From a bacterium BMS3Abin03 (GTDB lineage: Bacteria > Bacteroidota > Ignavibacteria > Ignavibacteriales > Ignavibacteriaceae), in the NCBI GenBank assembly GCA_002898075.1, contig BDSV01000190.1:1-45661 (forward strand): a stretch of 45,661 bases of DNA, in the 5' to 3' direction. Within the stretch, counting starts at the first letter, position 1, and each line of letters begins with the position of its first letter. Made by a program: the position numbers and the translations under genes. Below are positions 27,234-29,409 of this stretch, in pieces. Below the pieces are notes generated by a model. That model saw only the letters and a list, made by a program, of their open reading frames with translations, was not told the origin of the DNA and made no database searches.

Positions 27234-28145
27234 TTTAAAGTTAGAAAACAAATTAGGTCTTCTTTAGCTGAAGATTTACAACGAACCAAAACGCAGTTAG
27301 GTGAATTTAAAAATATTACTCTAAGAGTTTTGGATTATTTGCCGGATGTAATTAATGAAGAAACAAAGTATAACAATTATATCCTTTGTGCTTCGAATAT
27401 TGCCGGTACACGAAAGCAGTTACGTCCTTTTAATAGTGAATTGTTTATCAGAAATTCAAACAGATTTAAAGAAAATTATGATCGGCTTACAAACATTCTG
27501 AATAGACTTCAAAAAGGGGAAAGAACTTTTACCCCGAAGGAATACGATATTGTTGACAGTGTAATTTATTCAATCTAACAAGCAATCGGGATTGGGTTGG
27601 ATTTGATGGTTGAATCGAATAGTGCCCGGAAACAAGTTGGTACCAGGTTTGAAGAATTAATCAGGTCAACTATTAGTTCATTGGATATTTCTTTGAAAAA
27701 GATAGTCTTAAATATTCCTTATGATACTGAAGAAGGACAAAAATATTATAAATGCGAAACAGATATTGTAATATCTCCTTTTAAATCTGTTAAATCAGAT
27801 TCGAAGACTATTCATCCTAATGAAGTTGTTATATCTTTGAAAACAACGACAAAAGATAGAATGCCCAAAATATTTATTGATAAGATGCTGTTAGAAAATT
27901 TTGTCGGTCATTCAGTTAAAGTTGTGGGCATTTCCCAGAATGATATTCAAAGAAAGGGTGATTCGGAAATAAGTTATACATTTGTATCTCATCTATTTAT
28001 GGTTTACACAAGATTTTTAATTCAATTGGAAGGTTATTACTATTTGGATCGTCCTGCCAGAGCTTTTGAATCGCCTTATAATCAGTACATATTCCCATTT
28101 TCAAAATTTATTATTAAGGATATATGGGCTTTGCTAAGACCTTAG
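27234..28145 (+). pseudogene. Type II restriction endonuclease, interrupted by an in-frame stop
   Basis: A single frame is open from 27234 to 28145 except for one TAA at 27576-27578. Read through, the join gives VIYSI-stop-QAIGIGLDLM and then SNSARKQVGTRFEEL, a stretch I associate with type II endonucleases. The TAA is one base from CAA (Gln). The catalytic core looks like PD-(D/E)xK: CETDIVIS, then VVISLKTTTKDR with the likely catalytic Lys. The region 27234-27329 has coding character but no ATG, GTG or TTG; the first is TTG 27330. So the start seems lost, too. The 3' end overlaps the convergent methyltransferase gene by 12 bases. Reinitiation at TTG 27597 or ATG 27606 could still make a C-terminal fragment of about 180 residues. 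The recognition site is unknown. Confidence 0.72.
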
Positions 28146-29198
28146 CTTTATCCTTCTTCTAACTGCTTCTATCTCATCTTTTGATGAAGCAATTCTATTT
28201 ATATTTTTTGAATCGCTTAATCTTTCTTTGATAATCTGGCAATATTCTTTACTTAACTCTGTGCCTATCCATTTTCGTTTGAATGCTTCTGCAACTGCAA
28301 AAGTAGTACCCGAACCACCGAAAGGATCAAGTACTCTATTTCCCTCTTTTGATGAGGATAAAACACACCTTCGCACTAACTCTACCGGTTTCTGCGTTTT
28401 GTGTTCGGGTTTTTCCCAGGAGCCATTAGAAAGAGTTGGAATTTCCAATACATCTTTTGGTTTAGCTCCTCTGGGATTTGGCTCCCAAATATATTTTCTA
28501 CCATTTCCGTTATTGTATTGTGAGCTATCAGACTGAGGATGGACCGGGTATTTTAGCGTATGCGCGTTATACGGAATTCTCACTTCGTCCATGTTAAAAG
28601 TGAAGTCTTTACTTTTCCTAAAATGTAACAAACTTTCATGAGACCGTCCCCAATCTTTTCCTAAATTTGCTTTGTTTCTATAGAACCAAACTAACCATTT
28701 ACATCCTTTGAATAAATGACTTGCTGCCCATTTGAGATCCGCGAGAATTTCAGAGAACCCGCAAATGTACAAAGTGCCGGTCGGTCGTAAAACTCTCTGA
28801 GCTTCTTTAATCCAGAGCATGCTCCACTCGACATATTGCTTTTGTGATTGGAAACTGTCCCACTCGGCTTTATGTATGTTGTAAGGTGGATCAGCAAAAA
28901 TCAAATCGATGGATTCGTTTTCAATTGATTTTAAAAATTCTACGGCATCTAAATTGTATAATTCACCAAGCGCAGTTTTAAAATACGGTTCGGGTAAATT
29001 TTTTGTACGGGTTGGGATTGCAAATTCTAATTGTAATTCCTTTACTAAATTGTTTACCTGTTCCTCTGAATAAACCCTGTAATTATTAATTGGATGGCGG
29101 GATGACGTAAACTTGCCATTCTTATCCCATCGTCTGAGAGTTTCTTTGTTAACGCCGATAATTTCAGCAGCTTTACTTATAGTATATAGTTTTTTCAT
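28134..29198 (-). CDS. DNA methyltransferase (beta class, N4/N6) with MerR-like HTH
   Basis: This is a 354-residue amino-methyltransferase. A MerR-type helix-turn-helix occupies about 3-55 (TISKAAEIIGVNKETLRRWD, and the wing HPINNYRVYSEEQ). The catalytic motif DPPYN (LIFADPPYNIHKAEWD, motif IV) comes before the SAM-binding motif FGGSGTT (LDPFGGSGTTFAVAEA, motif I), the order of beta-class N6-adenine or N4-cytosine enzymes. All key residues are present. It lies tail-to-tail with the endonuclease remnant. Operator-like repeats in its own promoter (29181-29249) suggest the HTH lets the enzyme repress itself. It may persist as an orphan, protecting the genome or regulating genes. Confidence 0.93.
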   Translation of the reverse strand: MKKLYTISKAAEIIGVNKETLRRWDKNGKFTSSRHPINNYRVYSEEQVNNLVKELQLEFAIPTRTKNLPEPYFKTALGELYNLDAVEFLKSIENESIDLIFADPPYNIHKAEWDSFQSQKQYVEWSMLWIKEAQRVLRPTGTLYICGFSEILADLKWAASHLFKGCKWLVWFYRNKANLGKDWGRSHESLLHFRKSKDFTFNMDEVRIPYNAHTLKYPVHPQSDSSQYNNGNGRKYIWEPNPRGAKPKDVLEIPTLSNGSWEKPEHKTQKPVELVRRCVLSSSKEGNRVLDPFGGSGTTFAVAEAFKRKWIGTELSKEYCQIIKERLSDSKNINRIASSKDEIEAVRRRIKLRS

Positions 29199-29249
29199 GC
29201 TCGTTTCATATCATACGAAAGTTTATACAACATTATACAACTATATACT
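29181..29249 (-). promoter_or_regulatory. Candidate autoregulatory operator and promoter of the methyltransferase
   Basis: AGTATATAGTT (29181-29191, just inside the coding start) has an exact inverted copy, AACTATATACT, at 29239-29249. Between them lie two direct copies of TTATACAAC (29223-29231 and 29233-29241), 10 bases apart, one helical turn. On the minus strand the second copy contains TATAAT (plus positions 29232-29237), a perfect -10 hexamer. Repeats covering a -10 element upstream of a protein with its own MerR-like HTH fit negative autoregulation. Binding is inferred. Confidence 0.55.
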
Positions 29250-29409
29250 AATTTAAGATAAGATTATTGTTAAGAAAATGATTTGTAAAGCTAATTTTTG
29301 CTTGAAATTTGATCCTGACTTTTAATGCGATTACTTTAAATAGATCAATTAAAAATTTCCTATTGCAGTTTCATCAAAAAATGCACTCATTGAACAGGGA
29401 GCATTTCAA

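What the first reader, a model, noticed from the sequence alone, without database searches (positions are those of the whole stretch)
28134..29249. Methyltransferase with its own MerR-like repressor domain and facing operator repeats
Fusion of an HTH to the enzyme, plus direct repeats on the -10 region and an exact inverted pair (29181-29191 and 29239-29249), suggest that the enzyme controls its own level without a separate C protein. With the endonuclease decayed, it may now serve as a regulator by methylation.
Basis: partly seen in the sequence, partly recalled or inferred. Interest (0 to 1): 0.55.

Follow-up and report, generated by a model that had tools for sequence, protein, structure and literature searches.

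The report
Self-repressing DNA methyltransferase with repeat operator
A bacterial DNA-modifying enzyme carries a built-in DNA-binding head, and its relatives that have this head share three short tandem repeats at the start of the gene, which suggests that the enzyme switches off its own gene without a separate regulator.

Summary
ORF 28134-29198(-) joins a MerR-type winged helix (residues 5-51) to an N6-adenine-type methyltransferase (97-325), beside a convergent type II endonuclease gene that is broken in the window. The operator differs from the one proposed: the exact inverted pair exists in the window but in none of 18 other homologous loci. What is conserved is three tandem 10-bp direct repeats (29221-29250, -) at the -10 edge and predicted start site. 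All 19 distinct HTH-bearing loci have it (L020 weakly); 7 HTH-less homologous loci do not. Lag-10 self-match over the 19 loci is 13.7 sd above shuffles. Exact matches occur in 11 of 19 carrier genomes, only at this gene, and in 0 of 20 non-carriers. Best reading: the HTH binds head to tail, as in CarH and BldC, and represses its own gene, a new variant of methyltransferases autoregulated through an N-terminal HTH (SsoII, EcoRII). Binding and repression are inferred. 'Regulator by methylation after decay' is unsupported: the endonuclease frame shows little sign of relaxed constraint.

The parts
28134..29198 (-). MerR-like wHTH (residues ~1-55) + variable linker (~55-77) + N6-adenine-type DNA methyltransferase (78-330), 354 aa
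   Evidence: Pfam MerR_1 and N6_N4_Mtase; 18 of 18 homologues scanned match both; nearest solved structure M.MboIIA 1g60 E 1.3e-35; DPPYN (103-107) before DPFGGSGTT (291-299) read in the sequence
29037..29198 (-). winged-helix DNA-binding head (residues 1-54)
   Evidence: predicted H7-14, H18-26, E41-44, H45-59, block pLDDT 67-85 up to residue 50; BldC 6ama Z 7.8, 33% id, CarH 5c8d Z 7.7, 27% id (Z under 8, fold level only); phmmer hits CarA 2jml (name recalled), CarH 5c8d, 6ama/6amk
29241..29250 (-). operator unit 1 (TAGTATATAG; degenerate in the window)
   Evidence: seen in most homologues as TTGYRTANNG
29231..29240 (-). operator unit 2 (TTGTATAATG)
29221..29230 (-). operator unit 3 (TTGTATAAAC)
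29245..29273 (-). predicted promoter TTAACA-17-TAGTAT; the -10 hexamer lies inside unit 1
   Evidence: consensus scan; 15 of 19 distinct loci have a TTGA-type -35 16-17 nt before the best hexamer near this place; not significant in the window alone (32 of 300 shuffles)
29180..29191 (.). left arm of the inverted pair (inside the first codons of the gene); window-only
   Evidence: exact 12-nt match to 29239-29250, not conserved in 18 other loci
27258..28145 (+). convergent type II restriction endonuclease, pseudogene in the window (no standard start codon, TAA at 27576-27578); 12-bp stop-codon overlap with the methyltransferase
   Evidence: PADLOC REase_II PDLC03436 E 2.6e-16 for the part 27597-28145; 66% identical to the intact 299-aa gene of L011; that intact homologue matches PDB 6ekr E 1e-9, 3-sequence profile E 3.7e-13; lesions and overlap

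Best explanation
This is the modification half of a chromosomal type II restriction-modification system, and the methyltransferase is its own repressor. Several molecules bind by their N-terminal MerR-like winged helices, side by side and head to tail, to three 10-bp repeats that lie about one helical turn apart across the -10 edge and start site of the methyltransferase gene. This blocks RNA polymerase. When the system enters a naive cell no repressor is present, so the promoter fires and the genome is methylated early; as enzyme accumulates, repression holds it at a level that does not methylate incoming phage DNA. The endonuclease gene, convergent and without a clear operator, is not directly controlled. 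Shown: fusion, operator conservation, co-occurrence of HTH and operator, lack of other convincing operators. Inferred: binding, oligomer geometry, repression, timing.
For: Three tandem 10-bp repeats upstream of 19 of 19 distinct HTH-bearing loci (22 locus records, 3 duplicates). Against TTGTATAAKGTTGTWTAA the 22 records show 0 mismatches in 13, 1 in 5, 2 in 3 and 4 in one (L020); dinucleotide shuffles reach the observed value in 0 of 300 for 21 records and 2 of 300 for L020 (the pattern came from the same loci). Pattern-free test over the 19 loci: lag-10 self-match z 13.7, lag-20 z 5.2, every other lag from 5 to 21 between -2.7 and 2.2. Controls on the sense strand: 7 HTH-less homologous loci (no HTH by Pfam) have 6-8 mismatches; 21 endonuclease upstream records (19 distinct, one of them from HTH-less L026) have 5-8. 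Exact sites: 11 of 19 carrier genomes, each only at this gene; 0 of 20 genomes lacking the gene. HTH mean pairwise identity 0.73 against 0.43 for the linker over 17 loci. On the other strand 53 of 57 units contain TnnRCA; CarH operators are 11-bp tandem repeats nnnnTnnACAn, three for T. thermophilus CarH, over -35 or -10 elements (PMC9304148, passages read). Head-to-tail binding of direct repeats by a MerR-like wHTH is established for BldC (PMC5859096, passages read), and a methyltransferase repressing itself through an N-terminal HTH for SsoII-like enzymes (PMC3978073, PMC3874152, passages read).
Against: No binding or expression data. The repeat finder listed no direct-repeat family in the window region. 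Period 10 differs from CarH (11) and BldC (9), and the TnnRCA core is short enough for a chance match. A similar fold does not fix the geometry: CvkR (7xn2, Z 7.4) binds an inverted repeat (PMC9938897, passages). Unit 1 is degenerate in the window (TATACT on the reverse strand) and L020 keeps only one good unit; on the reverse strand the upstream of the L020 endonuclease gene has a 4-mismatch match, as good as that locus's methyltransferase site. In 8 of 19 carrier genomes no exact site exists and in G235 none within 2 mismatches. Promoter hexamers in single loci are mostly no better than shuffles. Structure model good only for the HTH. Loci share descent, so 19 is not 19 independent events.
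Confidence: 0.8

Rival explanations
1. The HTH is a classical MerR-like dimer that binds the inverted pair 29181-29191 / 29239-29249, or the pair forms an mRNA hairpin around the start codon.
For: The 12-nt exact pair is beyond shuffles in the window (0 of 300); the 98-nt leader folds at -18.3 kcal/mol; some MerR-type repressors bind inverted repeats (CvkR, PMC9938897, passages).
Against: 18 of 18 other distinct loci have only 5-8 nt inverted matches, shuffle level; one arm lies inside the coding sequence; the RNA fold is z -1.65 with 11 of 200 shuffles as stable; no Pfam dimerisation domain was listed between HTH and methyltransferase.
Confidence: 0.06
2. The HTH is an auxiliary target-recognition or DNA-tethering domain for methylation, and the repeats are bound by some other host regulator.
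For: Accessory DNA-binding domains are common; nothing here shows binding.
Against: Repeats and HTH occur together in 19 of 19 distinct loci and both are missing in 7 of 7 homologous loci; exact repeats are found only at this gene, and the array is shared by genomes of four families (f1, f2, f24, f32), which a host regulator would not readily explain.
Confidence: 0.08
3. After endonuclease loss the methyltransferase is an orphan that regulates host genes by methylation.
For: Endonuclease frame broken at two places, methyltransferase frame intact. First-codon-position differences in the endonuclease are somewhat higher for the window's two pairs (0.28 each) than for two intact pairs (0.19 each), so slight relaxation is possible.
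Against: Endonuclease amino-acid identity to 13 outgroup loci is 0.627, against 0.618, 0.605 and 0.575 for intact sisters, so loss is recent; 1 of the 6 genomes of the genus listed has the gene; the lesions could include draft-assembly errors.
Confidence: 0.05

Closest known systems
M.SsoII / M.Ecl18kI (and EcoRII-type) autoregulatory methyltransferases
   Same: Methyltransferase with N-terminal HTH region that represses its own promoter, no C protein (PMC3978073, PMC3874152, passages read)
   Different: M.SsoII is a C5-cytosine enzyme with a 15-bp quasi-palindromic site in the intergenic region, and its repression indirectly raises the endonuclease; here an N6-adenine-type enzyme, MerR-like wHTH, three direct repeats, convergent genes
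CarH / CarA (MerR-like wHTH with B12-type domain)
   Same: Tandem direct repeats over promoter elements, TnnACA core, three repeats for T. thermophilus CarH (PMC9304148, passages); wHTH sequence and fold similarity
   Different: 11-bp period, light and B12 control, effector domain instead of an enzyme
BldC family
   Same: MerR-like wHTH without coiled coil, head to tail on direct repeats (PMC5859096, passages); 33% and 35% identity over 55 and 52 aligned residues (6ama, 6amk)
   Different: Free-standing 68-residue protein, 9-bp repeat, regulon of developmental genes
RptR, repressor of type I restriction-modification operons
   Different: Separate small homodimeric protein; its minimal site is a 6-bp palindrome; type I system
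C.Kpn2I-controlled restriction-modification system
   Same: Only the methyltransferase is repressed, with no effect on the endonuclease (PMC6237814, passages). The endonuclease here is distantly related to PDB 6ekr, which I recall as Kpn2I; one search did not confirm that name
   Different: Separate C protein; C5 methyltransferase (recalled)
M.MboIIA-type beta-class N6-adenine methyltransferases
   Same: Catalytic domain; class name and motif order recalled
   Different: The MboIIA match begins at residue 78; HTH-less relatives show no HTH

Membership tests
Autoregulatory methyltransferases with N-terminal HTH (SsoII/EcoRII kind) | HTH fused N-terminally to the methyltransferase | tested here: met
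   Pfam in 18 of 18 homologues scanned; the 19th distinct locus, L017, by tblastn
Autoregulatory methyltransferases with N-terminal HTH (SsoII/EcoRII kind) | Operator overlapping its own promoter | tested here: met
   Conserved repeats at the -10 / start region by sequence only; occupancy not tested
Autoregulatory methyltransferases with N-terminal HTH (SsoII/EcoRII kind) | C5-cytosine catalytic domain with palindromic regulatory site (as in SsoII) | tested here: not met
   PF01555 N6_N4_Mtase with DPPYN; tandem repeats
BldC family | Free-standing small wHTH protein | tested here: not met
   Fused to a methyltransferase
BldC family | wHTH fold without a MerR coiled-coil dimerisation domain | tested here: met
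   AF2 model of the first ~59 residues and VIA match to 6ama/6amk (fold only, Z under 8); only a ~25-residue variable linker before the catalytic domain
BldC family | 9-bp direct repeat bound head to tail | tested here: not met
   Period is 10 bp; head-to-tail binding itself not testable here
CarH/CarA | Tandem 11-bp nnnnTnnACAn operators | tested here: inconclusive
   Core TnnRCA in 53 of 57 units but 10-bp period
CarH/CarA | B12-binding C-terminal domain | tested here: not met
   C-terminal domain is N6_N4_Mtase
C-protein-controlled restriction-modification | Separate small HTH controller gene next to the system | tested here: not met
   Immediate flanks too short in the window, L009 and L011; L010 starts near a contig end and is not decisive; a distant controller was not searched for
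Type II restriction-modification | Endonuclease gene next to the methyltransferase | tested here: met
   Endonuclease homologue beside the gene in the window and in 21 of 21 other HTH-bearing locus records; no in-frame stop in those 21, L030 being partial at a contig end; broken in the window. Activity not testable

The most novel reading that the evidence does not exclude
The enzyme is a one-component methylation thermostat: the same molecules are shared between unmethylated target sites and a cooperative three-unit operator, so invading or newly replicated unmethylated DNA pulls the enzyme off its operator and raises its own synthesis. That would make a MerR/CarH-type direct-repeat repressor whose 'ligand' is unmethylated DNA, fused to the enzyme that removes it.
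Probability: 0.2. Interest if true: 0.7.

Novelty: new variant of a known kind. Interest (0 to 1): 0.5.

Why it matters
It would extend autoregulation by methyltransferases from C5 enzymes with palindromic sites to an adenine-type enzyme with a CarH/BldC-like head on direct repeats. It gives a compact natural repressor-enzyme with a predicted, phylogenetically supported operator that one gel shift can test. In five full-text searches, judged from their listings with three papers opened in part, I saw no report of a MerR-type domain fused to a DNA methyltransferase acting as its repressor; that library lacks most subscription journals.

Tried and rejected
Inverted pair as operator: real in the window, not conserved. 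Second operator in the genome: the one near-match with a triple array (G000:C161:26596-26623, 1 mismatch) lies over the start of a gene that looks by eye like fliS. The 18-mer TTGTATAATTTTGCATAA of that site also occurs in genus member G399, which lacks the gene (that it is the same gene there was not checked), and up to 2 mismatches the pattern is no commoner than its reversed control (80 against 91 hits summed over 19 carriers), so I treat it as a coding coincidence. Single-mismatch sites elsewhere: G087:C68 and G460:C146 among carriers, four sites in G397, G152 and G236 among non-carriers.

Target sequence by palindrome avoidance: partial samples of 40-337 kb from 6 carriers (G353, G475, G274, G412, G263, G070), 2 non-carriers (G132, G396) and G000; L245 of G148 was fetched but left out. 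Among the six most depleted hexamers printed per genome I saw none shared by the carriers and absent from the non-carriers; TCCGGA was near expectation except 56 against 78 in G353. GGCC was depleted in 5 of 6 carriers and G000 but also in non-carrier G132. Inconclusive.

Pfam and NCBIfam gave no family for the window endonuclease, Pfam none for three intact relatives. Plasmid records held 8 endonuclease and 7 methyltransferase relatives, the latter matching from residue 60 onward only; phage records none at E 1e-30. Of 80 viral-contig loci kept (167 confirmed) a tblastn with residues 1-62 found no HTH fusion. AF2 models of the full protein (mean pLDDT 39) and endonuclease (45) were too poor beyond the HTH. 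Tree: HTH rows need one change of label, support 73/86, 80% of bootstraps, so a single gain is compatible but not shown.

Full report
WHAT IS THERE. The ORF at 28134-29198(-), 354 aa, joins a MerR-type winged helix (MerR_1, residues 5-51) to a PF01555 methyltransferase (97-325). The catalytic part is nearest to M.MboIIA among solved structures (1g60, E 1.3e-35) and has DPPYN before DPFGGSGTT, the beta-class order (order recalled). Beside it, convergent and with a 12-bp stop-codon overlap, lies a type II endonuclease gene (PADLOC REase_II for 27597-28145). In the window that gene has an in-frame TAA at 27576-27578 and no ATG/GTG/TTG start between the upstream stops and the conserved beginning; the 22 other endonuclease records examined (3 duplicates; L030 partial; L026 from an HTH-less system) show no in-frame stop in the aligned part.

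HOMOLOGUES. A survey of 395 genomes of the phylum found a related methyltransferase (E 1e-60 or better) in 15, of which 10 carry the HTH and 5 do not; of 164 genomes of the order, 17 have it, 16 with the HTH. Three named loci (L009-L011) are Ignavibacteriota metagenome assemblies. Of the 6 genomes of the window's genus listed, only G000 has the system, and the window copy groups with copies of another family in the tree (support 88/80), as expected for a mobile restriction system.

THE OPERATOR. Upstream of the gene the most conserved block is a run of three 10-bp direct repeats, consensus TTGYRTANNG | TTGTATAAKG | TTGTWTAA, with 3 to 30 nt between the third unit and the ATG. Against TTGTATAAKGTTGTWTAA the 22 records show 0 mismatches in 13, 1 in 5, 2 in 3 and 4 in one (L020). 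Because that pattern came from the loci themselves, I ran a pattern-free test: over the 19 distinct loci the mean best self-match in 20-nt windows at lag 10 was 14.63 against 9.96 (sd 0.34) in 200 sets of dinucleotide shuffles, z 13.7; lag 20 gave z 5.2; every other lag from 5 to 21 lay between -2.7 and 2.2. So the array is periodic and tandem, not inverted. The general repeat finder, run on the window alone, had listed no direct repeat here. In the window the units are 29241-29250, 29231-29240 and 29221-29230 on the minus strand; unit 1 has drifted. The predicted promoter is TTAACA-17-TAGTAT (29273-29245). In 14 of 19 loci the best -10-like hexamer ends on the first base of unit 1 and 15 of 19 have a TTGA-type -35 16-17 nt upstream, though the search was confined to this area and single loci, the window included, are mostly no better than shuffles. 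Bound protein would cover the edge of the -10 and the start site.

CONTROLS. Seven homologous methyltransferase loci without HTH (Pfam; two are near-identical copies in one genome) have 6-8 mismatches; 21 endonuclease upstream records have 5-8 on the sense strand. On the reverse strand the L020 endonuclease upstream has 4, an exception I cannot interpret. Whole-genome scans found exact sites in 11 of 19 carrier genomes, in each case only at the methyltransferase gene; of the other 8, seven have 1-2 mismatches at the gene and G235 none within 2. None of 20 related genomes without the gene has an exact site. At up to 2 mismatches the background equals the reversed-pattern control. The regulator thus appears to have one operator: its own.

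THE INVERTED PAIR. It is exact over 12 nt in the window and exceeds shuffles there, but the other 18 distinct loci have 5-8 nt. As mRNA it could pair around the start codon (z -1.65). I regard it as window-specific, probably made by drift of unit 1 and the first codons.

HOW IT MOST LIKELY WORKS. The head is a wHTH followed by a short variable linker, with no listed dimerisation domain. Its sequence and predicted fold lie near CarA/CarH and BldC (Z values under 8 show the fold only), and CarH and BldC bind tandem direct repeats (PMC9304148; PMC5859096; passages read). Not all such heads do: CvkR binds an inverted repeat (PMC9938897, passages). On the other strand 53 of 57 units contain TnnRCA, close to the TnnACA core reported for CarH, with a period of 10 instead of 11; a core this short could match by chance, so this is a pointer. 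I infer cooperative head-to-tail binding by three enzyme molecules joined to their catalytic domains by the linker (identity 0.43 against 0.73 for the HTH and 0.79 for the catalytic domain, 17 loci). The consequence would be early expression in a naive cell and later self-limitation, the negative feedback described for SsoII and, through a separate protein, for Kpn2I, where also only the methyltransferase and not the endonuclease is repressed.

THE 'DECAYED ENDONUCLEASE'. Two lesions are present, yet its identity to 13 outgroup loci (0.627) is not below that of intact sisters (0.618, 0.605, 0.575). First-codon-position differences are somewhat higher in the window's two pairs (0.28) than in two intact pairs (0.19), so slight relaxation is possible. 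Loss is recent, or partly an assembly error; it gives no support to a new epigenetic role.

NOVELTY. Known kind: methyltransferases that repress themselves through an N-terminal HTH. New here: adenine-type enzyme, MerR/CarH/BldC-like head, triple direct-repeat operator, convergent genes, found in four families of one phylum. I found no prior description in the searches listed under Why it matters.

Noticed in passing
G000:C161:26596-26623 (L048:6597-6624, -): A near-operator with three tandem units lies over the start of a gene that looks by eye like fliS, next to a flagellin-like gene in the same genome; probably a coding coincidence.
   Followed up: partly
L017 (G361:C26): The HTH-methyltransferase frame has a TGA at about codon 125 while the endonuclease frame beside it is open; harmful if both readings are real, so perhaps a sequencing error.
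   Followed up: no
L020 (G235:C47), endonuclease upstream: A 4-mismatch match to the operator pattern on the reverse strand of the endonuclease upstream, the only one that close among 21 records.
   Followed up: no
L012:3980-4705: A similar MerR-like head (54% over 48 residues) is fused to a different protein, by eye an ATPase-like domain, in a Moraniibacteriota assembly.
   Followed up: no
L024 and L027 (G284:C5): Two near-identical HTH-less copies of the methyltransferase with tandem endonuclease genes lie about 9 kb apart in one genome.
   Followed up: no
G000, sampled ~243 kb: Depletion of CAGCTG (3 against 44.5 expected), GAGCTC (2 against 19.2) and GGCC (23 against 336.5) suggests other restriction pressures on this lineage.
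   Followed up: no
L026 (G364:C1): An HTH-less relative is nevertheless convergent with its endonuclease and is placed next to the HTH clade on a long branch, so gene order may have changed before the HTH was gained.
   Followed up: partly
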